Part shown: positions 2,711 through 36,740 of the stretch, one piece after another
How positions within the stretch are numbered: the first letter of the stretch is position 1
Layout of the letters: each line of letters begins with the position of its first letter
Origin: Dipodascopsis uninucleata var. uninucleata
Lineage: Eukaryota; Ascomycota; Lipomycetes; Lipomycetales; Lipomycetaceae
DNA length: 64,000 bases
NCBI GenBank assembly: GCA_030568195.1
Contig: JAJLTO010000021.1
Coordinates: 105,952 to 169,951, forward strand
Direction: 5' to 3'
Position numbers and translations under genes: made by a program
The notes under the pieces: model-generated
Seen by the model: only the letters and a program-made list of their open reading frames with translations
Database searches by the model: none
What the model was told of the DNA's origin: nothing

Positions 2711-3562
2711 ATGGCTGGTAATACTAGTAAAAAGGTTCAGAAACCTACTACTACTCGTCGAAGAATTGACAGAGAACCTCGATCTCGATCAGGTTGCTTG
2801 ACTTGCAGAGCTCGTCACAAAAGATGTGACCAACGTGCACCTACTTGCATGAATTGCGAGAGGCTTAAGATTAAGTGCGAGGGATACAGTTCCATTCTTC
2901 GCTGGCAGGAACGTTTCATGCTTGGAGCGCAAATTCCTGATACTTTTTACCATAGTGTTAGATACGTCAATCTGCACTCTAATGATTATAAGCAGTATGG
3001 AAACGAGGTTGAGGTGTTACTCGACATTTATTCTCCTTATGATGTGAAAGATAGCAACAATAATTATGTTCGCCCTCCTTTGAACATTACTGCAGCTAGC
3101 TTATCTACACCAAGCCGAGTTCATCACCTCCCTATTGCTGACAGTACTACCTTTACGCAGCCATCAGTTCAAACTCCAACTCCGACTCCCTTTATGAATT
3201 CTGCAATAGGCACTCCTGATCTGACTGATATTGATGACAGTGGAGCAAGCTCCATATCTACTCCTTTCACGCCATATAATGACAGCTCTTCTGACTATTC
3301 CTTTCCTTCAGTCAGTGCACCTCTGTCTTCGTCTGGAGACATTAGTGTTGGATCCATTGATAGTTTACATCAAGACGATGACTATTTTAGTTTGCTCTCC
3401 AGCGGAGCGAATGATCGCAAGCTTTCTTTCTCATTTGGTCAGATGAAGTCTGGCTTTTCTGGTGACAATGACCCTATGTCTGCGTTTGCGAACCTAGACA
3501 AAGATTGGCTTTGTCAGCCAATTGAGAGCAATAGAAAACTCAGTCTTTCATTGGCTTGGTAA
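2711..3562 (+). CDS. Short Zn2Cys6 regulator, tandem copy 1
   Basis: This is a 283-residue intronless protein. After a basic N-terminus (TTRRRIDREPRSRS) comes a textbook binuclear cluster, GCLTCRARHKRCD...C..C......C, at about residues 29-58, ending in CEGY and an RW pair typical of many ascomycete C6 factors. The C-terminal 170 residues are rich in Ser, Thr, Pro, Asp and Gly and look disordered and activation-domain-like. There is no large middle homology domain, so the protein is far shorter than Gal4-type factors. Its nearest relative is the gene at 5917: the zinc cluster and the following ~35 residues (IP-T-YY-S-RY-NL) are shared and the tails diverge. The two are tandem paralogs on the same strand. 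Targets are unknown. Confidence 0.9.
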   Translation: MAGNTSKKVQKPTTTRRRIDREPRSRSGCLTCRARHKRCDQRAPTCMNCERLKIKCEGYSSILRWQERFMLGAQIPDTFYHSVRYVNLHSNDYKQYGNEVEVLLDIYSPYDVKDSNNNYVRPPLNITAASLSTPSRVHHLPIADSTTFTQPSVQTPTPTPFMNSAIGTPDLTDIDDSGASSISTPFTPYNDSSSDYSFPSVSAPLSSSGDISVGSIDSLHQDDDYFSLLSSGANDRKLSFSFGQMKSGFSGDNDPMSAFANLDKDWLCQPIESNRKLSLSLAW

Positions 3563-5916: not shown

Positions 5917-6723
5917 ATGGTTGCGAAGTCTGCAGCCAACAAGTCCTCCAGACGCAGCGTAAGCGGCCGGCGCAGATTTGACCGGCAACCAAGGTCAAGA
6001 ACGGGCTGTCTTACCTGCCGCGCTCGACATAAGCGTTGCGACGAAAGAGCGCCTACATGTTATAATTGCGAAGTACTCAACCTGAAATGCGAAGGCTACA
6101 GGTCCCTGCTAAGATGGCACGATCAGTCGATGCAGTCTGTTGATATACCAGAAACCTACTATAATAGTATACGATACATAAACCTTTCCATGGATACATT
6201 CAAGGAGGACATAGAGGATTTCATGCAGCATTACAATCCATTTGATGTCGATTACACTGCCCATCTTGAACGGCCTTCAGTATTTAGAAATTGGTCAGAC
6301 ATGGCCGAGCATCCACAGCGTGATATAGACAGTAGTGCTTGGGTTCATACTCCAGACTTGGTGATGTCTTCAGCTTCATCGGTTATACAGCAATCGGAGC
6401 CAGACGACTACTTATCTTTAGCACCAACATCTGGAGGAAGCAATATTTCACTTCCACTTGACAACTACAACGATAATTCATATGACCTCAAGTATTACAA
6501 GAACGAGCCACATTCTAATAGTTACCTTGGTTCTGACCTTTCATCAGGTGGTTTCACTTCTATGACGACTATCTCGCCAATTCTCTACCCATTTTCTGAA
6601 GCGCGTATGCCAAGCGGTGACGAAGGTGGTATGTTCCATCAATCTGCACCTGCTTCAATGTTCCATTCTACTGAGCCACACGGACAATTTGACTTTCCTC
6701 TCGTTTTACAGACCAACAATTAA
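5917..6723 (+). CDS. Short Zn2Cys6 regulator, tandem copy 2
   Basis: The frame is open from 5854, but the ATG at 5917 (context ATCATGG) is chosen. It gives a 268-residue protein whose start lines up with that of the paralog at 2711, and the extra 21 upstream residues are hydrophobic and unlike a nuclear factor. The zinc cluster GCLTCRARHKRCDE...C..C......CEGY is near residues 30-60 and is almost identical to that of copy 1. The rest is a low-complexity Ser/Asp/Asn/Tyr-rich tail without a middle homology domain. Codon choice is slightly more GC-rich around the zinc cluster than in copy 1. The role is unknown. The pair presumably arose by tandem duplication followed by divergence of the effector region. 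Confidence 0.88.
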   Translation: MVAKSAANKSSRRSVSGRRRFDRQPRSRTGCLTCRARHKRCDERAPTCYNCEVLNLKCEGYRSLLRWHDQSMQSVDIPETYYNSIRYINLSMDTFKEDIEDFMQHYNPFDVDYTAHLERPSVFRNWSDMAEHPQRDIDSSAWVHTPDLVMSSASSVIQQSEPDDYLSLAPTSGGSNISLPLDNYNDNSYDLKYYKNEPHSNSYLGSDLSSGGFTSMTTISPILYPFSEARMPSGDEGGMFHQSAPASMFHSTEPHGQFDFPLVLQTNN

Positions 6724-15472: not shown

Positions 15473-17293
15473 TCATTCAACAGACTTCCATACAGCCTCA
15501 AGCTGTGGAATAGCATTCATGATTCCCGCAAGACTCATCGGTCGTGAATTTTGTAAATCCATATTGGCGGCCTGCGCCCCTACATAGTTATCGTGTGTTA
15601 TCCCAGTCGAATCGGTATAATTATAATGTGACGTTCCCGTAGACGCAGAGATTACGTTGCTTGCACCATGTAGCATTGTAGCTGCTATCATATTCGTAGT
15701 TTGACTAGCAGCAAGCATCTTTGCTTGTGCTAACAATGCCTCTATTCTTGGGACAGTCTGGCGCCAGACTTCGTTTCTCTTCATAATGAAGGCAGAGAAT
15801 TCTGCCATTGAACCGATATCACACGCGTAGGAGTATAAGTTTCTCATACGAGTTGAATAAAAGCTGCAGAAGACCCGTTCTTGGCAGAGAGCAGGCTGGT
15901 CAGAGAAAAATGTGCGCATAGGTGACTCTCTTACGACCTCTTCATAGCAGGACGGACAGCAATAATAGCCATCGGCTGTACGATACCAGTATCCTCCTTG
16001 AATTGTACGTCTCTGAACACACGGTGGACTTGCACAGACTCTCTGAACAAAATACGAGAACTTGGTAAAGTCTCCTGATGTAGCTGCCACAAGAAGAGTT
16101 GTTTTAATTATGGCACTTCTATTACCAGAAGTGAAATCACAAGTGTAGTGATCGGTTGGCTGAACTGTGACAATACTGAAATAGTTTCGGAAAAATGGAA
16201 AGAGAATTCCAAAGTAGTACTCAAAGCAGCGGGCACATATATCAAAACCAGTTTGAGGCAATCCCTGAACTGGCTGATCTCTAAATGCGTCAGGAACTAG
16301 AAAACACCGATATCGACTTATAGGTTTATCAGGCTGACATTGGTCGATCGTCAAGTAATTTTGCAGTGCCTCGAGCCAAGTCCTAAAATTCTCTGGTGAA
16401 TCCATATGAACCTTCTGCGTTTGGAAGAGCGGTGTATTTTCTCCAACGAAACATACATGACCCGGGTCCGGTGGGATCTCTCGGACTTGAGATGCAGCAT
16501 ATGTATCATGAAAAAGCTGCAAATAGCAGAACTCGCAGAATACATTGTTAACGTCCCTAAGCCCTGGAAGGCAGTACCATTTCATTGCTTGTCTATTACT
16601 GCTGCGCACATCAATAGAAGGACAGATGGCCAGATACAAATATCTAGACATCAATGTCCTAAAGTTGTCCCAGTCATTGGTCTTTACAGCACGTCTGCAG
16701 AGCGACAGAACCATGTCACAAATATACGACGCGTTTGAAGATTTCGAATCGTTTCGTTGGAATCCTCTATTCATGCTACCGCCGTCAAAATTACCAATAT
16801 AACAACGCTCACAGAATGTGAGATTTATTATGTGAGTATTAATATAAGCTGGATAGTCGCAGTACTTTGCAGGAAGAGCTTCAGGGCATAGCTTAACGTC
16901 TCGCAGGCGTTCTATATGTGCCTTCAGGTCATGAACTGCATTTGGATTTGTACTACTACAGATAACTTCTGTCCTCGCGTCAATTCTACACGGATCCTGC
17001 TGAAAAGACTTGGATTTTGATGGAACAAGAGTGTCAATTATTTGCGTATTTCCAAAAGGTTTGATCACAGTATTGTAGCAATTCGAACATATTTTCCAGT
17101 GATCTTCACAGCCAGGAAACGTGTACACATCCTCTTGCAGATCAGAGGCCATAAACTTGGTACAGAATACTCCATATCGCGATATATCGTTTCCTCCATG
17201 GCTTAGTGCTGGCAGTACCGAAACTTGTCTGGCTGAGTTAGCGAGCGCACATGCCCCTGGCCTTGGCGGCACCGGTGGTGCCGAAAAAGACAT
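15473..17293 (-). CDS. Cys-rich five-module protein of unknown function
   Basis: The product has 606 residues and no introns. The N-terminus carries APPVPPRPG, a proline motif of the SH3-ligand type. The rest is built from about five modules of 85-105 residues. Each has an early Cys, an aromatic-rich CxxC(Y/F) core (CSNCY, CERCY, CEFCY, CARCF, CPSCY), then a further one or two Cys and a Trp/Phe-rich helical end. The regular CxxC pairs suggest zinc-binding modules. The last ~100 residues are Ala/Thr/Asn-rich and Cys-free. There is no signal peptide or transmembrane segment. It matches no named family I can identify; a fungus-specific scaffold or zinc-ribbon protein is a guess. Divergent neighbours are distant. 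Confidence 0.85.
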   Translation of the reverse strand: MSFSAPPVPPRPGACALANSARQVSVLPALSHGGNDISRYGVFCTKFMASDLQEDVYTFPGCEDHWKICSNCYNTVIKPFGNTQIIDTLVPSKSKSFQQDPCRIDARTEVICSSTNPNAVHDLKAHIERLRDVKLCPEALPAKYCDYPAYINTHIINLTFCERCYIGNFDGGSMNRGFQRNDSKSSNASYICDMVLSLCRRAVKTNDWDNFRTLMSRYLYLAICPSIDVRSSNRQAMKWYCLPGLRDVNNVFCEFCYLQLFHDTYAASQVREIPPDPGHVCFVGENTPLFQTQKVHMDSPENFRTWLEALQNYLTIDQCQPDKPISRYRCFLVPDAFRDQPVQGLPQTGFDICARCFEYYFGILFPFFRNYFSIVTVQPTDHYTCDFTSGNRSAIIKTTLLVAATSGDFTKFSYFVQRVCASPPCVQRRTIQGGYWYRTADGYYCCPSCYEEVVRESPMRTFFSDQPALCQERVFCSFYSTRMRNLYSYACDIGSMAEFSAFIMKRNEVWRQTVPRIEALLAQAKMLAASQTTNMIAATMLHGASNVISASTGTSHYNYTDSTGITHDNYVGAQAANMDLQNSRPMSLAGIMNAIPQLEAVWKSVE

Positions 17294-18680: not shown

Positions 18681-19919
18681 ATGGGTCTCTCTAGCAAGCA
18701 AACTGAGGTAATTAAGAGTACGGTTCCCGTGCTCGCTGAGCATGGTCTGAAAATTATAACGACATTCTACCATAATCTGCTGACCGACAATCCCGACCTC
18801 TACGACGTGTTCAATATTACTGACCAGAAATTGGGCCTCCAGCAACGAGCGCTGACTGAAGCAGTGTACGCGTATGCCCAGAACATAGACAACCTCGAGG
18901 CTCTAGGTACAGCAGTCGAGCACATCTGCAACAAACATGCTTCTCTCTTTGTCCAAAAGGAACATTATGAAGTCGTAGGAACCTATCTCTTATCTGCCAT
19001 GAAAGAGATCCTGGGAAATGCGTTTACTCCTGAAATACACGATGCATGGGCAGCGGCATACTGGCAGCTCGCTGATCTCATGGTCGCAAGGGAAGCAGAG
19101 CTTTATCAGCAGAGTCACGGATGGACCAGCTGGCGCAAGTTCAAAGTGATTAAGAAAGTTAGAGAGTCGAGCGAGGTCACTTCTTTCTACATCGCCCCAG
19201 AAGATGGCAAGCCTCTGCAGTCGTTTCAACCAGGACAGTACATCTCGGTACGAGTACCAGTCCCAGAAATTGGCCACTTACAGGCGCGCCAATACTCGCT
19301 GAGCGATAAGCCAAGTCCAGATTATTACCGCATTAGCGTAAGGCGCGAACCTGCTGTCGATGACGGTACTAAGAAGATTTATGGCTACGTCTCTAACATC
19401 CTCCATGATAGTGTGAACGAGGGTGACATGCTTGATGTCTCTTGTCCGGCTGGTGACTTTGTGCTTCTTGAAAGCAGCGATGCTCCGAAGAACTCGCTGG
19501 TCTTTATCTCTGCTGGTATAGGTCTAACCCCCTTTATGTCCATGGTGAACGATCTCGTCCTCGAATCTAGCATCTCTCGGAGACAGATCCACTTTATACA
19601 TTGCGCACACGATGCGGCCTCCAGAGCATTTGCTGACCATATGCGAGCGCTTCAGAGTCCGTTGGTGCAAGTAACGCTGTTTAACAGTAGCGTTGGAGAC
19701 AGTGATGTACAAGGCAAAGACTATGATTTTAAGGGGCGCTTGGACCTTAAGAAACTAGACAAAACGAAAGACCTTCACCTGTCAGACGAAGGCACGCAGT
19801 ACTACATCTGTGGTCCCGGTAGATTTATGAGCGATACCTCGAAGGTGTTAGGAGACTTCGGCGTAGACAGTGATAAGATCAAAATGGAAGTCTTCAACAC
19901 CGGAAGTGTCCAGGCTTAA
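18681..19919 (+). CDS. YHB1: Flavohemoglobin (nitric oxide dioxygenase)
   Basis: The enzyme oxidises NO to nitrate with O2 and NAD(P)H and protects against nitrosative stress. The start at 18681 (MGLSSKQTEV) gives 412 residues, normal for the family; the longer upstream frame adds unrelated low-complexity sequence. The globin domain occupies residues 1-~140, with the B10 Tyr in TTFYHNLL (about residue 30) and proximal His in NKHASLF (about 86). The FAD domain shows RQYSLSDKP, and the NAD domain shows SAGIGLTPFMSM and YICGPGRFM. CTG encodes Leu in GLKII and NLLTDNP, which fixes the genetic code. The gene is intron-free and more GC-rich than its neighbours. Confidence 0.97.
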   Translation: MGLSSKQTEVIKSTVPVLAEHGLKIITTFYHNLLTDNPDLYDVFNITDQKLGLQQRALTEAVYAYAQNIDNLEALGTAVEHICNKHASLFVQKEHYEVVGTYLLSAMKEILGNAFTPEIHDAWAAAYWQLADLMVAREAELYQQSHGWTSWRKFKVIKKVRESSEVTSFYIAPEDGKPLQSFQPGQYISVRVPVPEIGHLQARQYSLSDKPSPDYYRISVRREPAVDDGTKKIYGYVSNILHDSVNEGDMLDVSCPAGDFVLLESSDAPKNSLVFISAGIGLTPFMSMVNDLVLESSISRRQIHFIHCAHDAASRAFADHMRALQSPLVQVTLFNSSVGDSDVQGKDYDFKGRLDLKKLDKTKDLHLSDEGTQYYICGPGRFMSDTSKVLGDFGVDSDKIKMEVFNTGSVQA

Positions 19920-20457: not shown

Positions 20458-22050
20458 CTAAGCCTTGCCTTCAACCTCAATGTGATTACTAGATGTCTTG
20501 GGAATTGCATCATGCATGTCTCGTACGAGTTTTTCACCCTCTCTTACACGCTCTTTCTCTTTCTCAATGAAATATTGTGGACGAGAACGCTGAGTAAGCT
20601 CTTTCTTTCCCGGACCAACGACAATAACTCCCTTGTATTCTGTAAATATGAGGTCGATATCCTCGAGAGTACGGCTGCAGGTTTCCGGGTAGAGTAGGTA
20701 CACTATGGGGAAGTAAGAGTACACGAAAATTGCAAACATTAAGTAGAATTTCCAGTGCAGGTTATTGACTCCAGTTTTAGTGAACTGAGTCACTATGAAG
20801 CCGCCCATCCAGTTTGTTGCTGTTGCCAAAGCAGCTCCTCTGGTACGCCACCCAAGCGAGTTAACCTCAGAGTTGTATACCCATGGTACTTTAGCGTAAG
20901 ATGTGCCGTAGCAGACGTAGTAGAAAAAGAACATCGATGTGGTCACGATACCCATCTCTCGTTTCTGCTTTGTTTCAGACACCTTTAAGCAAATAGATGC
21001 AATAAGGTATGCAGTTCCTGCAGATATAGAGCCCCATAGCATTAGCCTGCGTCGACCAACCAGATCTATCAGAATCAAGCACAGAAATGCCGCTCCTAGA
21101 TATGATGTCGCATTACAAGCAACCAACAGACGAGAAATCGTTCCTGAAAAGCCAATGTAGTCTTTGAGAATTGTAGGTAAGTAGTAGCCAAGAGCATTCA
21201 CACCAGTAAATTGTTGCATAAGCTGTGTTCCCATAGACAGTAAGAGACGGCGGAAATTCTGGCCCGGATCTCTAAAGGTAAGCACTTGCTTTACAGGTAC
21301 ATACGCAGCGCGTTCCTCCTCCAATGTCTTAATGATAGATGCATGTTCAGCTCTGACTTCTTCGTCATCTATAGATAAGTTTTTTCCCCAGAGACGAGAA
21401 ATCACTAGAAGCGCCTCATCAGAACGATCCTGCAAGATCAACCAGCGTGGTGATTCTGGAAGAAACACGATGATAGGGATCACAAAGAGTGGAAAAATTA
21501 ATTGAAATGCAAGCGGAAAACGCCACTGATATGGACCACTTGAGAAATACAGAGCGTAGTTCATCCATGAAGCAAGCATGTAGCAGAACGTGTTCGTCAG
21601 TGATCCTATAACCACTAGCTTTCCGCGCATGCGAGCTTTTGTGCACTCTGCCTGATACACAGGACAAGTAGACGACGTCATGCCCATACCAAAGCCGTTG
21701 ATTATACGGCCAACGATAAGCATAGGCAAATGGAAGGCTGCAACCTGCAAAATTGCCCCAATGATATTACATATTTGACCAAACGTTATAGTCTTTTTTC
21801 TTCCTACCTTGTCTCCGTATGTAAATGCAACAAGACAGCCAACGAAAGCTCCGAGAGAGAAACATGACGATGTGATACCATTAACATTTGCACGCTTCGT
21901 TTCCGGGAAGTGCTCGATAAAGTCCTCTGCTATAATTACGCCAGAGAATACGCCTTGATCGTAACCGAACCATCCCATTGAACATGCATTGCAGAAAGTT
22001 AGGAAAAATAGAAGCGTTCCTCCACTGAATCTGTCTAAAGGGTTGAGCAT
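20458..22050 (-). CDS. MFS sugar transporter of the D-galacturonate-type cluster
   Basis: The 530-residue protein is a sugar-porter (SP) family member of 12 transmembrane helices. Visible signatures are GWFGYDQGVFSGVI in helix 1, GRIINGFGMGMTSSTCPVYQAE, RMRGKLV, PESPRWL, QQFTGVNALGYYLPT and the C-terminal PETCSRTLEDID. It starts 561 bp from the divergently transcribed aldolase, so the two share a promoter. Clustering with sugar-acid genes suggests it imports the pathway substrate (galacturonate or a related acid or sugar); substrate cannot be read from these motifs. Intron-free and full length. Confidence 0.9.
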   Translation of the reverse strand: MLNPLDRFSGGTLLFFLTFCNACSMGWFGYDQGVFSGVIIAEDFIEHFPETKRANVNGITSSCFSLGAFVGCLVAFTYGDKVGRKKTITFGQICNIIGAILQVAAFHLPMLIVGRIINGFGMGMTSSTCPVYQAECTKARMRGKLVVIGSLTNTFCYMLASWMNYALYFSSGPYQWRFPLAFQLIFPLFVIPIIVFLPESPRWLILQDRSDEALLVISRLWGKNLSIDDEEVRAEHASIIKTLEEERAAYVPVKQVLTFRDPGQNFRRLLLSMGTQLMQQFTGVNALGYYLPTILKDYIGFSGTISRLLVACNATSYLGAAFLCLILIDLVGRRRLMLWGSISAGTAYLIASICLKVSETKQKREMGIVTTSMFFFYYVCYGTSYAKVPWVYNSEVNSLGWRTRGAALATATNWMGGFIVTQFTKTGVNNLHWKFYLMFAIFVYSYFPIVYLLYPETCSRTLEDIDLIFTEYKGVIVVGPGKKELTQRSRPQYFIEKEKERVREGEKLVRDMHDAIPKTSSNHIEVEGKA

Positions 22051-22611
22051 TTTGTATTGTGACGATGTGATTTTATAATTCGCTCCTTTATTTTTATCGT
22101 CATAATGAGAACATGCCAGTCCTTTAAGTACTTCGATCTTTTGTAGGAGGTCCTTTGATTTCGCTCAACGTACGATTCTCTCCACAATCCATGGGTGGGT
22201 TATTGTATTTCGGCGTTGTTTTCTTGTTCCGGAGTTCTGTAACTAAGAGATTTTGGGTAAAGAGGCGAAGTGCGGGGAAATTTGAAGCTTAACGGGGAAC
22301 GGCGGAGGACCCTGAGCTGGAAAATGTCAGAACAGACTCTCCACCTACCCGCGACACTTGTCATTCTCTCGAGAGACGACGCCCACTATCGTCATCAAAT
22401 TAATTAGTTCAAAGTAAATAACCAGAAATCTGGGGGTTTGGCATCAGCTGGTATGCGTTACTGATTGAGTTCAACTTTAGAGTAAAACTCAAAATGCATA
22501 ATGACATGAGATAAAATCACGTTCAAGACCAAGTGAGCATATAAAGTGGAGAGAAAGCCGAATTACATAGCAATAAGCACAGAGATAATTCAGAGAGCTT
22601 TATTGAACAAA
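22051..22611. promoter_or_regulatory. Divergent promoter: transporter / aldolase
   Basis: 561 bp between two divergent starts. A TATAAAG box at 22540-22546 lies 66 bp before the aldolase ATG. Mig1/CreA-type G-boxes are visible: GCGGGG at 22272-22277 and GCGGAG at 22292-22297. The 8-mer TGCGGGGA recurs, inverted, in the other divergent promoter of the cluster at about 25073-25080. This suggests coordinated carbon-source control. Confidence 0.5.
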
Positions 22612-23595
22612 ATGACTAGAGCTATTAAGTCACTTGTCCCAGGTGTATACGTACCAACGCTGACATTTTTCGATCAAGAGAGCGAAGCTATTGATCTTGA
22701 TACAATAGCCTTACATACTACTCGACTTGCAAGAGCAGGTGTGTCAGGTATTGTTGCTCTTGGCTCCAACGGCGAGGCTTGCAATCTCAATGACACCGAA
22801 AGAGTTGACGTCATTAAAACAACTCGTGAAGCTCTAGATAGTGCTGGTTTCACTGACATGCCTATCATAGCTGGGGTTACCCAGCAGAGTGTTGCATGTG
22901 CTGTTGCGGACTGTGCGGCTGCGTACCATGCCGGTGCAGATGCTGTTCTAATGTTAGCACCAACATACTACCGCGGTGCAGTGACGGATGAACTGGTAGA
23001 GAAGTTCTTTACTGCAGTCGCAGGCATGTCCCCAATACCTCTGATTCTGTATAACTATCCAGGTGTGGTCGCCGGATATGATATGGACTCGGACCTCATG
23101 ATACGCCTAGCCGCACATCCTAACATTACAGGAGTGAAGTTTACGTGTGGTAACACAGGAAAACTTGCTCGCGTAGTTGAAGCAACTAATGCATGGGGAC
23201 CATTTCGGCGAGAGCCTGATGACAGACCATCGAGCACTGACTTCCTTGCAATTGCAGGTATGGCAGACTTCGTTGTCACTGCAGCATCGCTCGGAGCATT
23301 TGGAGTTATTTCTGGTGCAGCTAATTTGATTCCGAAGACCATTGTACAGGCGTGGAGCCAAAGCATGTCTGCTGATGCTTCTGTGCGCGCTAAGGCGTGG
23401 AAATCACAACTTAGCCTTGCACAAAGTGACTGGGTTTTGACGAAAATTGGTCTTTGGGGTGCAAAGGCAACATTACAGAAATATTTTGGATATGGGGGTT
23501 ACATGCGCTTGCCTGGAAAACGACTGACAGAAAATGAGCTCAATTTGCTAGCAAATGATGTCGCTAATGTATTGAGTTATGAGCAGCTACTTTAA
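22612..23595 (+). CDS. LGA1: 2-keto-3-deoxy-L-galactonate-type aldolase (DHDPS family)
   Basis: The predicted reaction is cleavage of 2-keto-3-deoxy-L-galactonate to pyruvate and L-glyceraldehyde, the third step of fungal D-galacturonate breakdown. The ATG at 22612 (MTRAIKSLVPGVYVPT) gives 327 residues, typical of class I DHDPS/NAL aldolases; the frame is open upstream to 22546 but has no ATG there. Motifs: GSNGE at 51-55, catalytic Tyr147 in LILYNYPG, and Schiff-base Lys176 in ITGVKFTCGNTGK, the last very like Lga1/GaaC. It is divergent from the transporter and convergent with the reductase. A 2-keto-3-deoxy-L-fuconate aldolase would look similar, so the exact substrate is inferred from the adjoining dehydratase. 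Confidence 0.82.
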   Translation: MTRAIKSLVPGVYVPTLTFFDQESEAIDLDTIALHTTRLARAGVSGIVALGSNGEACNLNDTERVDVIKTTREALDSAGFTDMPIIAGVTQQSVACAVADCAAAYHAGADAVLMLAPTYYRGAVTDELVEKFFTAVAGMSPIPLILYNYPGVVAGYDMDSDLMIRLAAHPNITGVKFTCGNTGKLARVVEATNAWGPFRREPDDRPSSTDFLAIAGMADFVVTAASLGAFGVISGAANLIPKTIVQAWSQSMSADASVRAKAWKSQLSLAQSDWVLTKIGLWGAKATLQKYFGYGGYMRLPGKRLTENELNLLANDVANVLSYEQLL

Positions 23596-23773
23596 ATAGA
23601 TAGAATTTAGACTGGTGTTATAATGCAAATAATTGTTATTTAATTTAGATATAATAGATGACGATTACATTCATTAACTATCTTAATATACTATTTCAAT
23701 CTCATAAATTTAAAATGCCAAGAACACAAAAAAGAATATAATAATATAATAATATGACAATACATGTAACAGT

Positions 23774-24814
23774 CTATTGTTTCTCTATGTTGGCCATGGT
23801 AAGGAATTGTGATATGGAATTTACAATCATGCTTTCGAATGAATGATAAGAGAATCCAAGCTCAGCTGCCGCTGTCTTTCCATCGAGTTCATAGCTTGCC
23901 GGGATCTCTTCACCTGGATTTCCTAGTGCAATTCTATCACTAAGCTCAGGGAACTTTTCACGCATTATGTCTGCCGCCAATTGATAGGAGAAGAATTCAG
24001 GTGAAGCCGGAACATAGCGTTTACCGCCAGCTTCCCTTTGTAATAGAGAGAGAATGTGTGCTTGTGCAAGATCGCGAACATCGATCCATACAGGAACCCT
24101 AGATACTGGCAATGGGTTAATTCCAGAAGCGATGGACCACAGTATTGCATTTGAGATGTTGAGACTTCCTACGTTTTTCACAGGATGAACGATAGGACCA
24201 AATGTCATAGGAGGGCAGAGTGTAACTAAATCAAAATTAATCTCTCCGCTATGTTCACGAACGTAGTCCCAAGCTGCTAGCTCAGCAAATTTCTTTGATC
24301 CACGATAGGCAATGACTGGATCTGCCTTGCATGCTTCATCGTAAGTTAATGGGTTCCAATCCTCACCTGTGTACGTGAATCCTGGACCGGGACCTCTAGA
24401 AACATCCATGACTGATGCGAACGATGATGTGATTACCACACGTCGCACAGTCCCAGACTTATGCGCGGCAACCATGACGGCTTTGACTCCAGCAATAGCT
24501 GGGATTACGAGCTCCTCCTCTGCATTGCTGATGTCGTAACTGAAAGGAGATGCTACGTGGATAATTCCGTCACAACCTTCAGCAGCTTCATCCAAATCGC
24601 TTTCTGAGGAAGAGAAGTCAGAGATTAGAGCATATGAAAGAAGTTTTCCATACTGTGGACGTTCATTGACAAATGTTTGAGCCTTCTGAAGAGTCCTTGA
24701 GCCTACTTTAACGGCAATCTGTTTGCTGAGCAGGGCATCGACTACATGTGCGCCGATAAATCCTGTTGCTCCAGTTACAAGCACTTTTGAGTATTGTGCG
24801 AAGTTTTCTTCCAT
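23774..24814 (-). CDS. GRE2-like NAD(P)H-dependent aldehyde/ketone reductase (extended SDR)
   Basis: 346 residues. The Rossmann motif GATGFIGAHV is near residues 15-24, and the catalytic triad region TSSFASV and YRGSK is typical of the dihydroflavonol-reductase/GRE2 group. The C-terminal half contains the substrate-pocket region (LCPPMTFGP, VWIDVRDLAQAH). It shares a 444-bp divergent promoter with the dehydratase. In known galacturonate pathways, an aldo-keto reductase makes L-galactonate and another reduces L-glyceraldehyde to glycerol. GRE2 enzymes reduce small aldehydes such as methylglyoxal, so L-glyceraldehyde (or lactaldehyde) reduction is the favoured inference; uronate reduction is a less supported alternative. 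Confidence 0.85.
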   Translation of the reverse strand: MEENFAQYSKVLVTGATGFIGAHVVDALLSKQIAVKVGSRTLQKAQTFVNERPQYGKLLSYALISDFSSSESDLDEAAEGCDGIIHVASPFSYDISNAEEELVIPAIAGVKAVMVAAHKSGTVRRVVITSSFASVMDVSRGPGPGFTYTGEDWNPLTYDEACKADPVIAYRGSKKFAELAAWDYVREHSGEINFDLVTLCPPMTFGPIVHPVKNVGSLNISNAILWSIASGINPLPVSRVPVWIDVRDLAQAHILSLLQREAGGKRYVPASPEFFSYQLAADIMREKFPELSDRIALGNPGEEIPASYELDGKTAAAELGFSYHSFESMIVNSISQFLTMANIEKQ

Positions 24815-25258
24815 TTCTAATAGTTGCCTCTTCTAATTCGTTACTTTACCAGTTTCATTGACACACTGAAGTAAATAATTATCCTATTTATCATATATCT
24901 GTTCATAAGTAGATCTCAAGTTAATCTAGAGTTTACTTAAAGTCAGCCAATGATGAAAATGTTGTCACTTTCTATCTTTCGGCGCGGAAAGGCGGCAGCA
25001 ATACTTTTAAACTCGAAAGCCGAGCCACATGAAAGTTAATTATTATATGCCCTTAACCGATGCACCCGTCCATCCCCGCAATATTTCGCCCCGCTATTGT
25101 CTTCATCGTCGACCGGCAGACGGAAGCAATTGTGTACCTTCTCTCAAAGTATTTTTCTTGCATATACGTATATAAGGAGGGCGTATTGAAAGAAATCTTC
25201 TAGATGACAATTTCAAGAAACAGGCCGTAAATATTATATGCAAAAATAATAGAGCAAA
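24815..25258. promoter_or_regulatory. Divergent promoter: GRE2-like reductase / dehydratase
   Basis: 444 bp. TATATAAG at 25169-25176 lies 83 bp upstream of the dehydratase ATG. Two CCCCGC boxes (Mig1/CreA-type, reverse orientation) are at 25074-25079 and 25089-25094. CGGCGCGG and CCGACCGG-like GC islands occur between 24979 and 25120 in otherwise AT-rich DNA. Confidence 0.5.
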
Positions 25259-26623
25259 ATGGTTGCAGAACTTACTATTGTGTCTTTCGAGGTCACGGAT
25301 ATTCGATTTCCAACCTCGCTGGATGGGATTGGCTCAGATGCTATGCATGTGGGAACAAATGGCTCCCATCCATATATCAGGCTATACACTAATGAGGAAA
25401 AACTTGTTGGTGAAGGAATTGCGTTCTCTAATGGTCGAGGATCTGAATTAGTTTGCAGTGCAATGGCTATCTTTGCAGAGCGAGTCGTTGGAAAAACGCT
25501 GAGTCAACTGACTGCAAATATGGGCAAGACTTGGAGATATATGGTGTCAGACTCACAATACCGATGGATTGGTCCTGAAAAGGGCGTGACCCACTTAGGA
25601 ATGGCTGGTGTCATGAATGCAGTTTGGGATCTTTGGGCCAAGTCATTAAATAAGCCAGTTTGGCGTGTTGTTGCCGACTTCACTCCCGAAGAATTCGTCA
25701 GATGCATCGACTTCCGATACATAACCGACGTGATTACACCTGAAGAGTCTATTGAGATGTTGTCTAAAGTACAAGCCTCAAAGCAGGAGCGTATTGAAGA
25801 AGCAATGAACAACAAAGCTGTCCCGGCCTATACAACTTCTCCAGGATGGCTGGCATTTTCAGGAGATAAAATGAAGCAGGTTCTTCAAGAGACCATTGAT
25901 GAAGGATTTACAGTGTTCAAGTTCAAGGTGGGTTCTGACCTTGAATCGGACCGTGCACGTCTTCGTGCTGTACGGGACATCATAGGATATGATGATAAGT
26001 ATCAAATCATGCTTGATGCAAATCAAGTTTGGTCAGTTCCTGAAGCTATCGAATGGATGAAACATCTTGTCGAGTTTAAGCCAGTTTTCATTGAGGAGCC
26101 TACGAATCCAGATGACGTTCTAGGTCATGCAACAGTTCGCAAAGCTTTGAAGCCATATGGTGTTGGCGTTGCGACTGGCGAAATGGCACAGAACAGAGTT
26201 ACTTTCAAACAATTATTACAAGCAGAGGCTACTGATGTCGCTCAAATCGATGCAGTGCGCCTTGGTAGTGTAAATGAATGCATGGCCGTTATGCTTATGG
26301 CTAAGAAGTTTAATGTTCCCTGTATTCCACATAATGGTGCTATGGGACTCACAGAGCTTACTTCACATTTGTCTACCATTGACTATATTTGCGTGTCAGC
26401 AAAGAAATCAATGCTGGAAGCAGCTGAAAGCTATCGTGAAAATCTTTTGTATCCATCAGTGATTGAAAATGCTCACTATGTTACTCCATTAGCTCCAGGG
26501 TATTCAATAGGCTATGTTCCTGGTGCTATTGACAAGTTTAAGTATCCAGATGGAAAGTTTTGGCAATCTGAGATTGGGAAGAAGATAATCAACTCTCCAA
26601 AAGGCGGCGAGGGTCTCATATAG
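25259..26623 (+). CDS. LGD1: L-galactonate dehydratase (Lgd1/GaaB type; enolase superfamily)
   Basis: Predicted to dehydrate L-galactonate to 2-keto-3-deoxy-L-galactonate. The 454-residue protein aligns over its whole length with the fungal Lgd1/GaaB and animal ENOSF1 (L-fuconate dehydratase) group: IRFPTSLDGIGSDAMH near the start, RWIGPEKGV, WDLWAKSLNKPVWR and CIDFRYITD. Active-site residues are visible: the KxK base pair K221/K223, Mg ligands D253, E279 and E308 (LDANQ, FIEEP, ATGEM), and the D331/H358 pair. L-galactonate and L-fuconate share the relevant stereochemistry, so the motifs do not separate the two activities. The adjoining Lga1-like aldolase and the closer similarity to fungal Lgd1 favour L-galactonate. 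Confidence 0.88.
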   Translation: MVAELTIVSFEVTDIRFPTSLDGIGSDAMHVGTNGSHPYIRLYTNEEKLVGEGIAFSNGRGSELVCSAMAIFAERVVGKTLSQLTANMGKTWRYMVSDSQYRWIGPEKGVTHLGMAGVMNAVWDLWAKSLNKPVWRVVADFTPEEFVRCIDFRYITDVITPEESIEMLSKVQASKQERIEEAMNNKAVPAYTTSPGWLAFSGDKMKQVLQETIDEGFTVFKFKVGSDLESDRARLRAVRDIIGYDDKYQIMLDANQVWSVPEAIEWMKHLVEFKPVFIEEPTNPDDVLGHATVRKALKPYGVGVATGEMAQNRVTFKQLLQAEATDVAQIDAVRLGSVNECMAVMLMAKKFNVPCIPHNGAMGLTELTSHLSTIDYICVSAKKSMLEAAESYRENLLYPSVIENAHYVTPLAPGYSIGYVPGAIDKFKYPDGKFWQSEIGKKIINSPKGGEGLI

Positions 26624-26819
26624 AAAGATACAGTCTAATGTTCGTAAAATATGATTATTTATTATTGGTGAACATTCGATATGTTTCATGATAGTGAAGT
26701 GATTGGATTACAAATTGGTCCGTTATCATTATATAAATTTAGATGTGTGCTATCAGTCCAATGATAATCTCTGGCGAGATATCAAAAGGCTGATATTTTA
26801 TTTACAAACCAATTTTTTC

Positions 26820-28928
26820 TCATTCATTCCAAATTTCCTGTTTGTGTAAAATGTGCTTCAAAATCCACACACCTCTTTGAATACTGCTTCCTTCTTCAGC
26901 TCTAAGCGCTAAGTTTGATATTGTAATTTCCTGTAACTCCCGTATATCAGAAATATAATCACGTAATGCTGGTATTCTGCTGGCCGTAGTAGCAATGACA
27001 ATTGCTCCTAGTGAGCTCATTGAAAGAGTCCAAGAGTACGATGAGGACTTTTGAAGAACAGAACTAACATGTTGCAAGTACATTCGAATGCTCTCCAAAC
27101 ATTTTGCACAGCCATCTAATATTTGGGAGTAAAGACCACCATAATCCTCTTCGGCCGGTGACTTTGCAATAATATTCAACACAAACGGACGGAATATTAT
27201 ATGCCTTGCAGCATAATAACGTATTCGAAGAATCGCTTCTCGCTCGTTTCGGGGTTCTAGTGCGTCTGGACCTAAAGTAGGCTTCACGGGTCCAGGTATA
27301 GATTCATGCCACATTTCTAGCTGTCGATTAAGCTCATCACAGATAGCCATCATAGATTTCAGAGGTCGTGACGTCTGATCCTGTTCGCAATATAAAGAGT
27401 TATGAACTCGATTCAAAAGCCTTCTTATTGAAATCTCAGCTAAAAAATATATCATCGCAGGATCAGGAGGGTTTGAAACTGATGGCAACGGCATGTCATC
27501 CACCAGTGCTTCAATTCCAGACCTTGGTAGCTCGAATTCAGCGAGCCTGTCTGACTCAATTAAAAAGCAGCTCCAGAATAGCCTTATCTCAATTTCACTT
27601 AGATTTCCAATAGTTTTTTTTTGAGTTATTAGCATCTGAACTGCACATGAAGCAGCATGAATCATTTTCCAGCTACTGAGAGGATGGACTGCATAGGCGA
27701 GATATGCGCCAGCCAAAACCTGAGCTTGAGCTACTTCAATCTTTAAACCGAAATCAAACCTACTTATATCACTAATAATGTTAAATGCAGGATTGAAATA
27801 GTGCATACCAGGATAAGCCTTGTCAGAACTGTTTTCGGAACCTCCAGAAACAGACAAGGGTGTGCTTGCAGATGGCGATAATAGTGGCGGAGTTGCTATG
27901 TCCGTGTTGCTTGCAATCTCTCCTAGTGCTAGCACTATCAAAACAATGGCCGACTTGATATCCCAGCAAAGACCATTTTCAAGAATTGATTTGTAATATT
28001 CAAAAATTACATCCGTATCCACAACTGGGTGGTGAGGGTGTACAGTTGATATATACGTGGCTACAAGCATATCACCAATGTCTTGATCAATTGGTGGGAA
28101 CATTCTATCTGAAACTAGCCCAGAGATGTTTCGTTTCGCTTCGATATTGAAGAAATAGTTTTGCGGATAGTCACCAATGAGTGACTTTATTAAGGGAAGT
28201 CGCAGTACTCGAATTGTAGAGGTATTGTGTCCCATAGGAATTGTAAATGGCGGTAAAGTCTGACCGGCGAGTATATCAGCCTGGTAATCCTTAGTTGCGA
28301 CTCCTGCAGTAACATCATCCACACTAGAGTTAGGACTTCCATTAACAGTGGCCGACTGTCCATTGAATACTAAGCATTCATTTGAAGTAGAGCCGAGTGG
28401 GGAAACTTGCTTTTCATGCTCAGTCATTCTCTCCGACAAAGCGAAAAATAGTGTATCGTGTCTCCACAGTAGTTGTTCGATTCTATCTAATCTTTCTTGG
28501 ATGATATTACTATTACTACTGCCATCGAATCTAGATCAGAATCGTTAATATTGCATTCTGTATCGCCATTTCAGAGAAATACTCTCCTACCTAAACGAAC
28601 TAAGTTCCTGGTATGTGCAATCCGCGTCTGATTCTGCACAATTTCCGCAAACTGGACGTCGACCGTCACATCGCCGCTTCCTGAGTCAAGTTAGAAGTTT
28701 GCCGAGAATCAGAATTTTCAGAGAAACCGAAAGGAGTAACCAACTATCCCAAATATTTATTCATAGTAGAAGTAGAATGCTCCTTGTATATCGCATATAT
28801 CAAAACATAACAGCTCTGGCCAATCGTCTGTTATAATTGCTATTTACACTTGTTGGAGTATATATTTAATCTTACCTATGTCGACAGAAGTTGCAAGCAA
28901 CTGGTGCCCTCTTGCGTGCATAACTCAT
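26820..28928 (-). CDS. Zn2Cys6 regulator adjoining the sugar-acid cluster
   Basis: Three minus-strand exons are required: 28928-28876, 28680-28591 and 28530-26820. The introns (195 and 60 nt) have donors GTAAGA and GTAGGA and acceptors CTCAG and TCTAG, with a CTAAC branch-like motif before the first acceptor. Splicing yields a complete cluster: C12 and C15 in VACNFCRH, then C22, C29, C32 and C39. The ORF alone (from a TTG at 28439) would lack it. A short helical dimerisation-like stretch, RLDRIEQLLWRHD, follows, then a fungal_trans-type middle region (YISTVHPHHPVVDTDVIFEYY; RLFWSCFLIESDRL). Total 617 residues. It is convergent with the dehydratase, and physical linkage makes it the candidate pathway activator, a position analogous to GaaR by role; orthology is not established. 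Confidence 0.88.
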
Positions 28929-29415: not shown

Positions 29416-30786
29416 TTACATAGAGTATTTCTCTTTCTTAAAATGCATCACGACCAGAGAACGGTCAGGCATAATAGTGTGAATCTTATTTCCATTTTTC
29501 CACGTTTTCTGCATTTCCATAGTGTGATTGTTATCGACCAAGAAGGCCTCTGGAAGATCATTCACTGTGAGAGAAATTGTGACATCAGTCTCCGCCCCAT
29601 TATTAATTAAATTAACTATCAAGGAGCCGTCGGTGTTGACGAACGCAGCTGCCTTAATTGCCGAGGATAAGCTTGTTGCTTCAACACGCTTCGCTCCTGG
29701 TCTAATGTAGCGGGAGAATGGTACGAAAGCCCAGAATCTAGATGATGGCGTGATGGTGTCATTGTTGACATTCACCAGATGAGCAGAGTTGGTGTTATAC
29801 TCAGCGCCAATCCAATAGAGGTATGCGCTTACATCAGCTTCTATAATAGCATCCATAATATTATTAGCCCACGCCAGACCCTCATTATCTTCACCGCTAG
29901 AGTACCAAGATGCGGTGAAATCAGAAGTCAGGGGAGCATTTTCAGTTATCCAGACTGGTAGATTTGTGTTTATCTTGTAGGTAGGCTGCGTTGAATAACT
30001 GTGGGATGTGATAACTGAGAGTAGCTTCTCTGTGCCAGATTTCTGAATCTCCTTGGTCATATTTGCTTGATTGTCCCATCCCATAGAGTCGCAACAGGTC
30101 ATGCCAACTTGAGAGAATTCCGAGCGCTTTAGAGCCTCGTGGAACACCTTGATAAAGTCTGCTGCTTGGTATCCATCCGATATCATGGATGCATAGGTAG
30201 CGACGAAGTCTGGCTCATTTAAGAAGCCGACATGGGAGAATGATATACCTGATTCCTTATAGAATCTCATATATTGAATGAGATACTCAGCGTATGCTTC
30301 TCTCCAGTCACCACTAACACACTTCTCTCCTACAACGCCACAGATATAACCGCCATCTGAGATATTTTGATTGGTCTTCATATACGCAGGTGCAGTCCAA
30401 GCGTCTGCATATATGGTTTCGACACCATATGAAGCCGCCTTCTGGGTAAACCAAAGTTGGCCCTGATCAAATGCATCCCAAGAGTAAGTAGGCTTCTCCT
30501 CGGGGGAGCTTGGAGCATTAAGAACGAGATCATAGTTCACCAAGTTACGCAAGATCGACATACCTGCACCAGAGGTCTTGTTATAAAGAAGATCAATTAC
30601 CTTTTCTCTTTGACTATCGACAAGGTCTACTACTTGAATAGCATCTCCAAAAGCTTCGGCAAAGCCAAAGCCATCCATTGTTTGGTACTTCTTAGAAGTG
30701 GAAATTGTGATGGCCTGGCTGGCCCGCCTAGCCAGACTGGCAGAAGCGAAACATAAAACTAAAATAGATATCTCTGAAAGGTGCAT
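29416..30786 (-). CDS. Secreted GH30 glycoside hydrolase (xylanase-like, subfamily 7 type)
   Basis: 456 residues. The N-terminus MHLSEISILVLCFASASLA is a signal peptide, so the enzyme is secreted. The (beta/alpha)8 catalytic domain shows the general acid/base Glu191 in HVGFLNEPDF and the nucleophile Glu282 in PVWITENAP. The ~91-residue spacing is as expected for GH30. TYADAW-like and SWDAFDQ segments, and the compact beta-sandwich C-terminus (SLIVNLINNGAETDVTISL), fit fungal endo-xylanase or glucuronoxylanase members rather than glucosylceramidases. Several N-glycosylation sequons are present. Its position beside uronate catabolism fits release of uronic-acid-bearing sugars from plant wall polymers; that link is inference. 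Confidence 0.88.
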   Translation of the reverse strand: MHLSEISILVLCFASASLARRASQAITISTSKKYQTMDGFGFAEAFGDAIQVVDLVDSQREKVIDLLYNKTSGAGMSILRNLVNYDLVLNAPSSPEEKPTYSWDAFDQGQLWFTQKAASYGVETIYADAWTAPAYMKTNQNISDGGYICGVVGEKCVSGDWREAYAEYLIQYMRFYKESGISFSHVGFLNEPDFVATYASMISDGYQAADFIKVFHEALKRSEFSQVGMTCCDSMGWDNQANMTKEIQKSGTEKLLSVITSHSYSTQPTYKINTNLPVWITENAPLTSDFTASWYSSGEDNEGLAWANNIMDAIIEADVSAYLYWIGAEYNTNSAHLVNVNNDTITPSSRFWAFVPFSRYIRPGAKRVEATSLSSAIKAAAFVNTDGSLIVNLINNGAETDVTISLTVNDLPEAFLVDNNHTMEMQKTWKNGNKIHTIMPDRSLVVMHFKKEKYSM

Positions 30787-35163: not shown

Positions 35164-36740
35164 TTAATCTACAGTTTCCTTTACATTCGTAGAAATCTCG
35201 AAGTCGAATACATTAGTCTCAGTCGTCTGGAATTTCCTGGCCGGAACTTTTTTCGCAAATAATGCGTCAAGTTTTGCATAACTCAAACCTCGAGGTTCAG
35301 GGAGTTGAAAGAAAATCCATACTATACACAAAAGGGTAGTACTGCCCCAGAAGAAGCCACTCCTTTGTCTCCAGTTCCAGGCAGTAGTGTTTAACATATA
35401 TGGTGTCAGGACCTGTCCTACAATCTGTCCCACTATGTACGTGCCTCTTGCAAGTGCAATGGTCTTTGACCGCAGTCTAGACGATGGTATCTCAGCTGCA
35501 ACCGAGTATACAATCGGCCCAATACCTATATCATACGTAAACATTAAGACTAACAGCAAGACGCCGCTTGCCCAGCTTATGCCAGAAGACGTTGGAACAC
35601 ATCCTAGAATTCCAATAACCATGCATACTACAAACATCATGGCGAATGAATTTAAGTAGAGTGTTCTACGACCATAGAACTGCATCAAGAACCAACAGCA
35701 TATTGTGCTAATGTAAAATCAAATGAAACAGACGGCGACAAGCCACCTTTCTCGAAGAAATAAGTGGAGTATCTAAGTAGTTGAGATCCACATAGACTTT
35801 GGCACGCGTATGCTATACACGAAATATGCGTGCGACGAAGGTCGACGTCCCTAAAGCAGTCGAGATAGGTGCCTCCCTGTGTTATCTCTCTTTCCAAAAG
35901 TACTGCGTGCTCAATCATAGCTACTGTCTTATGAACATCGATACTCCCTTTCGTAATTAGTCTCTCTAGAGAATGGACAGCTTCGCTATTCCTTCCACAT
36001 CTCACAAGCCACCACGGGGATTCTGGAGCGACAAAGGAAACATGCACAATGGGAATTGGCCACATCCACTGAAGCGCAAATGGAATTCTGAAACCCCACT
36101 TGTCTGTTCTATACAGTAAACCGCGGATAACAGCTGCAGACAAAAAATTGCCTATCTTCCAACAAATATTGACATATGTTGTCAAATACGATCGAAGAAC
36201 TACAGGGCATACTTCTGCCGCATACGCTGTAGTAATTGTCTGGAATACCCCCCAAGCTACTCCTAGCAAAACTTGTCCGGTGAGCAACGTAGGAAGATTT
36301 TGTGCAAAGAACGGAATAAATATGAAACCTGTCATGAACAAGGGTCCAATGTGCATTGTGTGACGATATCCAAGTTTATCGGTCAGATAACCTGTTATCA
36401 ATAGCCCCACAATTTGACCAGATGACGATCCAGCACTATAACCAGACTGCCATCTAGCGGGAAGCTCTTTTACGCCACTAGCAGAGATGATTCCAAAGGT
36501 GTCCAAAAATGACGGATATGTATAAAAGGAAAACATCATGACTTGATCAAATCCCTCCATAATTACGGCCGAGAGAGTACACAGGACCAGGCCATAGCTT
36601 TAGGGTAGGCTCTTATACCTTGCATCAGAGTCATTTTATGCTCGGATTCTGTAGCGAACTTGGCATCCTCGATGAGTTTCTGTATTTTCAAGGCTCCATC
36701 TTTCTCGAGGTATTCCACATCAGTTTTTTCTGGAACTGAT
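35164..36740 (-). pseudogene. Broken alpha-glucoside (maltose-type) MFS transporter
   Basis: Three reading segments of one transporter are out of frame with each other. The N-terminal piece (about 36740-36580) reads HKMTLMQGIRAYPKAMAW, then a GA-repeat at 36571-36576 (one extra 2-nt unit relative to the expected frame) leads to a stop. The middle piece (36560-35685) starts MEGFDQVMM and carries AAEVCPVVLRSYLTTYVN and APESPWWLVR. At 35685-35692 the frame shifts again, between AQYAVG and FLMQFYGRRTLYL, where several residues expected in this family are missing. The C-terminal piece ends at 35164. No in-frame ATG exists at the expected N-terminus because a stop lies just upstream (near 36742). 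The motifs are those of MAL/AGT-type permeases. Two independent lesions plus start loss argue for decay rather than one sequencing error. Confidence 0.8.

What the first reader, a model, noticed from the sequence alone, without database searches (positions are those of the whole stretch)
20458..28928. Compact D-galacturonate-type catabolic cluster in a yeast-like genome
Transporter, Lga1-like aldolase, GRE2-like reductase, Lgd1-like dehydratase and a Zn2Cys6 regulator lie together as two divergent pairs plus a regulator. Seen directly: active-site residues of the dehydratase (K221/K223, D253, E279, E308) and aldolase (Y147, K176) are intact. Established: these are consecutive steps of the fungal reductive pathway from D-galacturonate to pyruvate and L-glyceraldehyde. 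Inference: the substrate is L-galactonate rather than L-fuconate. Uronate use is uncommon in budding yeasts, and a contiguous cluster with its own transporter and regulator would be notable.
Basis: partly seen in the sequence, partly recalled or inferred. Interest (0 to 1): 0.78.

Follow-up and report, generated by a model that had tools for sequence, protein, structure and literature searches.

The report
Paralogous yeast sugar-acid catabolic gene cluster
A five-gene yeast cluster looks like the known fungal pathway for pectin's main sugar acid, but its enzymes are side-branch copies of that pathway with an altered dehydratase, so it probably degrades a different, still unidentified sugar acid.

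Summary
Window 20458-28928 encodes a sugar-porter transporter, an LGA1-like DHDPS-family aldolase, a GRE2-like reductase, an enolase-superfamily sugar-acid dehydratase and a Zn2Cys6 regulator (modelled with two introns, ATG at 28928). The genome is that of Dipodascopsis uninucleata or a very close relative.

The D-galacturonate reading is not supported. The same genome carries a separate LGD1/GaaB-type dehydratase (contig 14) and a separate LGA1-type aldolase (contig 16). The cluster's dehydratase belongs to another clade ("group A", yeasts and filamentous ascomycetes). It keeps seven catalytic residues. However, at 18 of 139 columns where LGD1-type enzymes, ENOSF1, 4ip4 and FucD agree, group A is fixed for another residue; the reverse happens at 1 of 110. 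The cluster aldolase groups with Sugiyamaella and D. tothii, apart from LGA1-type proteins.

Group A dehydratase and the reductase are neighbours elsewhere: 7 of 8 species pairs with readable locus tags lie 2-4 genes apart.

Best reading: an ascomycete cluster breaking a sugar acid other than L-galactonate or L-fuconate via a 2-keto-3-deoxy acid to pyruvate plus an aldehyde. The substrate is unproven; L-gulonate (from D-glucuronate) is the boldest candidate.

The parts
20458..22050 (-). MFS sugar-porter transporter, 530 aa; presumed importer of the sugar acid or its precursor
   Evidence: Pfam Sugar_tr E 3.5e-99; NCBIfam sugar porter subfamily TIGR00879 above its cut-off; substrate not resolvable from sequence
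22051..22611 (.). divergent promoter region of transporter and aldolase
   Evidence: 561-bp gap between divergent ATGs; no motif clearly shared with the other cluster promoters
22612..23595 (+). DHDPS-family 2-keto-3-deoxy sugar-acid aldolase, 327 aa, paralogue of LGA1/GaaC
   Evidence: K176 and Y147 intact; nearest relatives Sugiyamaella 59%, D. tothii 55%, other listed rows 45-52%; separate from own contig-16 LGA1-type protein on the tree
23774..24814 (-). GRE2-like extended SDR reductase, 346 aa; GATGFIG at 15-21, Y170-xxx-K174
   Evidence: PDB best match GRE2 E 9.1e-55; motifs; linked to group A dehydratases in other fungi
24815..25258 (.). divergent promoter region of reductase and dehydratase
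   Evidence: 444-bp gap
25259..26623 (+). enolase-superfamily sugar-acid dehydratase of the uncharacterised fungal group A, 454 aa
   Evidence: 103 of 120 listed proteins, the window's own included, are group A; catalytic K221, K223, D253, E279, E308, H358, E387 kept; 18 columns shifted in group A, 17 of them in the window protein itself
26820..28928 (-). Zn2Cys6 regulator, 617 aa, three modelled exons (28928-28876, 28680-28591, 28530-26820)
   Evidence: splicing model; Zn_clus E 1.1e-10
29416..30786 (-). neighbouring GH30 subfamily-7-like xylanase (N terminus signal-like by eye); membership of the cluster uncertain
   Evidence: best PDB match Xylanase C 6m5z E 6.3e-118; lacks the Arg that recognises methylglucuronate

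Best explanation
A dedicated sugar-acid catabolic cluster that runs parallel to, and is paralogous with, the cell's LGD1-type and LGA1-type enzymes. The transporter imports a sugar acid (or its sugar). The group A dehydratase removes water from an aldonate to give a 2-keto-3-deoxy acid. The LGA1-like aldolase splits this into pyruvate and a short aldehyde. The GRE2-like reductase reduces the aldehyde to an alcohol (or, less likely, makes the aldonate in the first step). The Zn2Cys6 protein controls the set. Shown: gene content, intact catalytic residues, separate clades, linkage of dehydratase and reductase in other fungi. Inferred: the order of reactions, co-regulation, and that the substrate differs from L-galactonate, L-fuconate and D-arabonate. 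The window aldolase agrees with LGA1-type rows at 90 of 109 near-invariant columns (the cell's own contig-16 protein at 94), so the dehydratase probably feeds it a product like that of the galacturonate route.
For: Separate LGD1-type and LGA1-type genes elsewhere in the genome. Group A against LGD1-type: 46 columns fixed differently in 89 and 18 sequences. 18 of 139 columns that LGD1-type rows, ENOSF1, 4ip4 and FucD share are shifted in group A, 10 of them in four stretches (20s loop, 50s loop, after H358, after E387) that hold 24 of the 139; the reverse shift occurs at 1 of 110. Dehydratase and reductase: 20 of 119 listed reductases have the same longest-contig length as a group A dehydratase; of 8 pairs with readable locus tags 7 are 2-4 genes apart. 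In D. tothii dehydratase, aldolase and reductase are all listed with a 483,378-base contig. Aldolase conservation.
Against: No expression, growth or enzyme data. No experimentally characterised LGD1, GaaB or LGA1 sequence was in hand, so 'LGD1-type' for group B rests on source names and on the absence of Trichoderma, Neurospora, Botrytis, A. niger and A. nidulans from the named group A rows. That the shifted columns line the pocket is inferred from superfamily anatomy, not from a structure; at column 127 the window protein has the residue of the LGD1-type rows, and the contig-14 protein itself departs from FucD at 389 and 391. The reductase family is wider than the cluster: linked members are not grouped on its tree (18 changes against a shuffled mean of 18.8). 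No shared promoter motif stood out. Of 119 listed aldolases only the D. tothii and Sugiyamaella ones share a contig length credibly with a group A dehydratase, so the Pezizomycotina clusters may use another aldolase.
Confidence: 0.68

Rival explanations
1. It is the D-galacturonate pathway after all: group A is simply a second L-galactonate dehydratase, and the cluster gives extra or conditional capacity beside the contig-14 and contig-16 copies.
For: At least 15 of the 103 group A rows carry source names such as (L-)galactonate dehydratase; catalytic residues intact; window aldolase agrees with LGA1-type rows at 90 of 109 near-invariant columns; two GH28 matches in the genome.
Against: Such names are given to group B rows as well. 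Group A lost 18 residues shared by LGD1-type rows, FucD, ENOSF1 and 4ip4. No uronate reductase of the aldo-keto type lies in the cluster.
Confidence: 0.2
2. It is an L-fucose (or D-arabinose / L-galactose) pathway: L-fuconate is dehydrated and split to pyruvate and L-lactaldehyde, which the GRE2-like enzyme handles.
For: Nearest solved structures by sequence are ENOSF1 and L-fuconate dehydratases. T. reesei lgd1 and lga1 are induced by L-fucose, and GaaB is reported 10-fold more active on L-fuconate than on L-galactonate (PMC12370193, passages). GRE2-type enzymes act on methylglyoxal/lactaldehyde (recalled).
Against: Residues common to FucD, ENOSF1, 4ip4 and LGD1-type rows are the ones lost in group A. 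No match to PF01120 (GH29) or PF14498 (used for GH95) in the genome; other fucosidase families not tested. No separate L-fucose dehydrogenase or lactonase gene among the five.
Confidence: 0.1
3. [quoted passage not shown]
For: Stereochemistry: C2 and C3 are lost on dehydration, so L-gulonate and L-galactonate converge (reasoned). Aldolase largely conserved but dehydratase shifted. Fungal galacturonate reductases also make L-gulonate, and A. niger, not among the named group A rows, was found to have no L-gulonate dehydratase (PMC6353982, PMC4870679, PMC5306355, passages). GH115-family gene in the genome; GH30-7-like xylanase next door.
Against: The neighbouring GH30 lacks the Arg that recognises methylglucuronate; no GH67 or GH10 match. 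A. niger uses a different glucuronate route. No direct evidence for the substrate.
Confidence: 0.15
4. The genes are neighbours by chance or are a decaying remnant.
For: No shared promoter motif found; the reductase family also occurs away from group A.
Against: ORFs open and catalytic residues intact; dehydratase-reductase linkage recurs across species; composition like the surroundings.
Confidence: 0.04

Closest known systems
Fungal reductive D-galacturonate pathway (GaaA/GAR1, GaaB/LGD1, GaaC/LGA1, GaaD/GLD1)
   Same: Same enzyme families for dehydratase and aldolase; same logic of aldonate to 2-keto-3-deoxy acid to pyruvate plus aldehyde to alcohol
   Different: Dehydratase and aldolase are paralogues; closer counterparts lie on contigs 14 and 16; the reductase is a GRE2-like SDR, not an aldo-keto reductase; transporter and regulator in the same cluster
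L-fuconate dehydratase (XcFucD, 2hne/2hxt) and human ENOSF1 (4a35)
   Same: 44.5% and 49.9% identity, same seven catalytic residues
   Different: 18 residues that these share with LGD1-type rows are replaced in group A
T. reesei FUR1-controlled L-fucose system (FDH1, LGD1, LGA1; PMC12370193, abstract and passages)
   Same: Dehydratase and DHDPS-type aldolase families used for a second sugar under a dedicated regulator
   Different: T. reesei is proposed to share one LGD1 and one LGA1 between sugars; here separate paralogues sit in a cluster
Fungal L-rhamnose LRA cluster
   Same: Clustered non-phosphorylative pathway with an enolase-superfamily dehydratase
   Different: Different dehydratase branch; a candidate LRA-type group (LRA3-like, amidohydrolase, SDR; names by eye and recall) is on contig 6 of this genome

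Membership tests
Fungal D-galacturonate pathway gene set | Dehydratase of the LGD1/GaaB clade | tested here: not met
   Window protein in group A (96/100), own contig-14 protein with the group B rows (90/87) (the outgroup branch is very long). That group B is LGD1/GaaB is itself inferred.
Fungal D-galacturonate pathway gene set | Aldolase of the LGA1/GaaC clade | tested here: not met
   Window, Sugiyamaella and D. tothii form their own set (94/96); contig-16 protein groups with Lipomyces and Myxozyma (97/99); most other rows are Pezizomycotina or unnamed metagenome rows. Reads as an LGA1 paralogue; no characterised LGA1 in the tree.
Fungal D-galacturonate pathway gene set | D-galacturonate reductase of the aldo-keto reductase family | tested here: inconclusive
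   None among the cluster genes; 25 matches to Aldo_ket_red in the genome, some of them exon pieces, the best next to the contig-14 dehydratase; none identified as GAR1/GaaA
L-fuconate dehydratase (FucD/ENOSF1) | Catalytic K, K, D, E, E, H, E | tested here: met
   All seven positions conserved
L-fuconate dehydratase (FucD/ENOSF1) | Residues shared by FucD, ENOSF1, 4ip4 and LGD1-type rows | tested here: not met
   18 of 139 shared columns are fixed for another residue in group A, 17 of the 18 in the window protein
L-fuconate dehydratase (FucD/ENOSF1) | Activity on L-fuconate | not testable with these tools
   needs enzyme assay
GRE2-like reductase family | Extended SDR with GxxGxxG and YxxxK and full-length match to GRE2 | tested here: met
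   GATGFIG at residues 15-21, Y170-K174; GRE2 match over residues 11-339
Zn2Cys6 regulator | Intact Zn2Cys6 domain | tested here: met
   Zn_clus E 1.1e-10 in the spliced model

The most novel reading that the evidence does not exclude
Group A is the fungal L-gulonate dehydratase that A. niger was found to lack. [quoted passage not shown]
Probability: 0.15. Interest if true: 0.75.

Novelty: new variant of a known kind. Interest (0 to 1): 0.5.

Why it matters
At least 15 of the 103 group A rows listed carry names such as L-galactonate or galactonate dehydratase that the evidence here does not support. The clade is a distinct, probably differently specific dehydratase linked to a reductase in fungi from budding yeasts to Pezizomycotina, with a member in Komagataella, the genus of the production yeast. 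One enzyme assay on a panel of sugar acids could name the pathway. If the substrate is L-gulonate it would supply a glucuronate route not known in fungi; in any case it offers a new enzyme and perhaps a new inducible regulator for sugar-acid use.

Tried and rejected
Galacturonate assignment: rejected as the leading reading because LGD1-type and LGA1-type genes lie elsewhere.

L-fucose: kept as a minor rival; no GH29 (PF01120) or GH95-type (PF14498) match.

GH30 neighbour as a glucuronoxylanase that would point to glucuronate: it matches subfamily-7 enzymes but has Asp where Xylanase B and the 7ncx/7o0e/8cbc chains have Arg, and so resembles Xylanase C, which lacks both such arginines; this counts against that link.

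Contig-14 aldo-keto reductase as the galacturonate reductase: not shown; by eye and recall it looks like another AKR branch.

Shared regulator motif: shared words and CGG/CCG pairs in four promoters gave nothing convincing.

Horizontal transfer: gene composition is like the surroundings and the named yeast sequences lie outside the Pezizomycotina set (98/100, with 27 of the 103 group A rows); no sign of recent transfer.

Bacterial source of group A: one scan of genome contigs (84,980 species) with two short conserved stretches gave 132 pattern matches and 1 confirmed relative, at 41% identity; relatives without either stretch would be missed, and the context of that one was not pursued.

Cluster-specific reductase clade: not found (119 of 120 listed rows, 20 labelled linked including the window's; A. 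tanneri counted as unlinked).

Galactarate as substrate: A. niger galactarate-induced genes include a mandelate-racemase-family protein (PMC5153877, passages); its sequence was not in hand, so not compared.
Full report
WHAT IS THERE. The five genes are confirmed at 20458-28928. Transporter and aldolase form one divergent pair, reductase and dehydratase another, with the regulator beside them (gaps 561, 178, 444 and 196 bp). The regulator's first exons had to be modelled: ATG at 28928, introns 28875-28681 and 28590-28531, giving 617 aa with a clear Zn2Cys6 domain. The window lies on contig 21 (bases 105952-169951) of a 16.2-Mb genome in 25 contigs. The aldolase is 99% identical (2 differences in 327) and the reductase 100% identical to proteins V1511DRAFT_507560 and 507561 of Dipodascopsis uninucleata, so the host is that yeast or a very near relative.

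WHAT THE DEHYDRATASE IS. Of 120 relatives listed (7992 passed the cut-off among 8000 scored), 103 including the window's own form a first group, 'group A'; the other 102 are 66-83% identical to the window protein, and the list then drops to 59-61%, 'group B', 17 rows. Group A holds yeasts (D. tothii 83%, Sugiyamaella 81% over 81% of the length, Komagataella pastoris 80%, Kuraishia 75%) and many Pezizomycotina. Names such as L-galactonate dehydratase occur in both groups and decide nothing. I take group B as the LGD1/GaaB type because none of the named group A rows is from Trichoderma, Neurospora, Botrytis, A. niger or A. nidulans, fungi in which LGD1/GaaB has been studied (partly recalled; rows are representatives of 90% clusters and some have no name). 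No experimentally characterised LGD1 sequence was in hand. The closest PDB chains by sequence are ENOSF1 (E 7e-139), 4ip4 and L-fuconate dehydratases (E about 1e-121).

THE CELL HAS SEPARATE LGD1- AND LGA1-TYPE GENES. Six places in the genome match MR_MLE_C, five over the cut-off. The one on contig 14 (ORF 129745-131013; its first exon is not in that ORF) is 73% identical to Fusarium solani's group B protein and 56% to the window protein. It joins group B in the tree (90/87), while group A is set apart (96/100); ENOSF1, FucD and 4ip4 form a third branch (92/64). The tree has 40 rows and very long outer branches, so the deep order is unsure. Four DHDPS-family places exist. The contig-16 one groups with Lipomyces and Myxozyma (97/99), whereas the window aldolase groups with Sugiyamaella and D. 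tothii (94/96) (31 rows, 28 of the 120 listed; two contig-8 paralogues are on very long branches). So the genome has an unclustered LGD1-type and LGA1-type pair and, in the window, a clustered paralogous pair.

SHIFTED RESIDUES. In an alignment of 89 of the 103 group A rows (14 shorter than 436 aa dropped), the 17 group B rows, the contig-14 protein and three solved chains, 46 columns are fixed (90% or more) differently in A and B. Of 139 columns fixed in B and identical in ENOSF1, 4ip4 and FucD, group A is fixed for the same residue in 103 and for another residue in 18. The reverse, A equal to the structures and B fixed differently, is 1 of 110. The window protein itself shows the shift at 17 of the 18 (not at 127); the contig-14 protein itself departs from FucD at 2 of them (389, 391). 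Ten of the 18 fall in four stretches (residues 30-38, 52-64, 358-369, 387-396) that hold 24 of the 139 (hypergeometric 7e-5; the stretches were chosen after seeing the columns, so this is a description, not a clean test). These are the 20s and 50s loops and the ends of barrel strands 7 and 8, which form the pocket in the enolase superfamily (established knowledge, recalled; not mapped on coordinates here). The seven catalytic positions of FucD (K218, K220, D248, E274, E301, H351, E382; roles recalled) are kept as K221, K223, D253, E279, E308, H358, E387. The picture is an active dehydratase with altered specificity.

ALDOLASE. The catalytic Tyr and Lys are in place. At 109 columns that are near-invariant in 118 other rows (117 listed relatives and the contig-16 protein), the window aldolase agrees at 90, the contig-16 protein at 94, and all three cluster aldolases agree at 82; all three differ at 8, of which about half are exchanges among small hydrophobic residues. 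So it is diverged but not obviously changed in kind.

A CONSERVED CLUSTER. The reductase search listed 120 proteins (591 passed). Of the 119 other than the window's own, 20 are listed with a contig whose length equals that of one of 101 group A dehydratases; in the 17 named cases the species agree, 3 are unnamed (lengths copied by hand). Eight of these pairs have readable locus tags: seven are 2-4 tag steps apart (Cylindrodendrum, Neonectria magnoliae, Cosmosporella taking its tags to run in tens, Stachybotrys, Lomentospora, Collariella, Sporothrix bragantina); A. tanneri's are far apart. In D. tothii dehydratase, aldolase and reductase are all listed with a 483,378-base contig; in Sugiyamaella dehydratase and aldolase share a chromosome-sized contig, which is weak. 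No other of the 119 aldolases matches credibly. Against overreading: linked reductases are scattered over the reductase tree (18 changes, shuffled mean 18.8), so the reductase family is broader than this pathway. Outside fungi, one pattern scan of 84,980 bacterial and archaeal species found a single relative at 41% identity.

HOW IT WORKS. I propose: uptake of a sugar acid or its parent sugar; dehydration of the aldonate by group A; aldol cleavage to pyruvate and a short aldehyde; reduction of the aldehyde by the GRE2-like enzyme; control by the Zn2Cys6 protein. The chemistry is inferred from the families. The substrate is open. L-galactonate and L-fuconate are disfavoured by the lost residues. 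L-gulonate is attractive because dehydration removes the C2 and C3 stereocentres, and L-gulonate differs from L-galactonate only at C3, so an LGA1-type aldolase would serve. Passages seen state that fungal galacturonate reductases also form L-gulonate, that LGD1 was specific for L-galactonate, and that A. niger has no L-gulonate dehydratase (PMC6353982, PMC4870679, PMC5306355). Another paper disagrees on LGD1's narrowness: it cites activity on D-arabonate and a 10-fold preference of GaaB for L-fuconate, and shows fucose induction of lgd1 and lga1 (PMC12370193; abstract and passages). The genome has a GH115-family gene but no match to the GH67, GH10, GH29 or GH95-type models used and two GH28 matches. 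The GH30-7-like neighbour lacks the methylglucuronate-binding Arg, which weakens the glucuronate link. Other aldonates are not excluded.

NOVELTY. I found no paper describing this clade or cluster in the ten paper searches that ran, all in an open-access library only; one search was the one worded for it. Motter et al. 2014, the A. niger dehydratase survey, was seen only as cited by others. I class it as a new variant of a known kind: known enzyme families and pathway logic, with a distinct dehydratase clade and an unassigned substrate.

Noticed in passing
window 29416-30786 (-): GH30 subfamily-7-like xylanase next to the regulator, closest in the PDB to Xylanase C (6m5z); lacks the eukaryotic methylglucuronate Arg. 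Yeast GH30-7 xylanases are reported as rare, 3 in 332 genomes (PMC8840591, passages).
   Followed up: partly
G000 contig 8, 654026-685293 (L041-L043): Two DgoD-like dehydratases (by eye) and two further DHDPS-family genes lie with two related putative regulators (1038- and 747-aa ORFs): looks like another non-phosphorylative sugar-acid region.
   Followed up: no
G000 contig 6, 625909-629529 (L044): LRA3-like dehydratase, amidohydrolase-like ORF and SDR in a row: a possible L-rhamnose-type cluster (names by eye and recall).
   Followed up: no
G000 contig 14, 127380-131013 (L038, L039): LGD1-type dehydratase beside a divergent aldo-keto reductase that does not obviously look like GAR1/GaaA; the pair may serve L-fucose, D-arabinose or galacturonate.
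   Followed up: partly
window 35164-36560, 48053-49480, 59941-61536: Further sugar-porter genes (ORFs 35685-36560, 48053-49480, 59941-61536 match Sugar_tr; 35164-35685 adjoins the first and was not tested) and a zinc alcohol dehydrogenase at 45679-46644: a transporter-rich region.
   Followed up: partly
window 15473-17293 (-): 606-aa cysteine-rich ORF without any Pfam match at E 0.001.
   Followed up: no
window 2711-3562 and 5917-6723 (+): Two short Zn2Cys6 proteins with very similar N termini, possibly a tandem duplication whose later exons were not modelled.
   Followed up: no
window 18681-19919 (+): Flavohaemoprotein (NO-inducible type) with the highest third-position GC of the 21 ORFs checked (0.54 against 0.34-0.45).
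   Followed up: no
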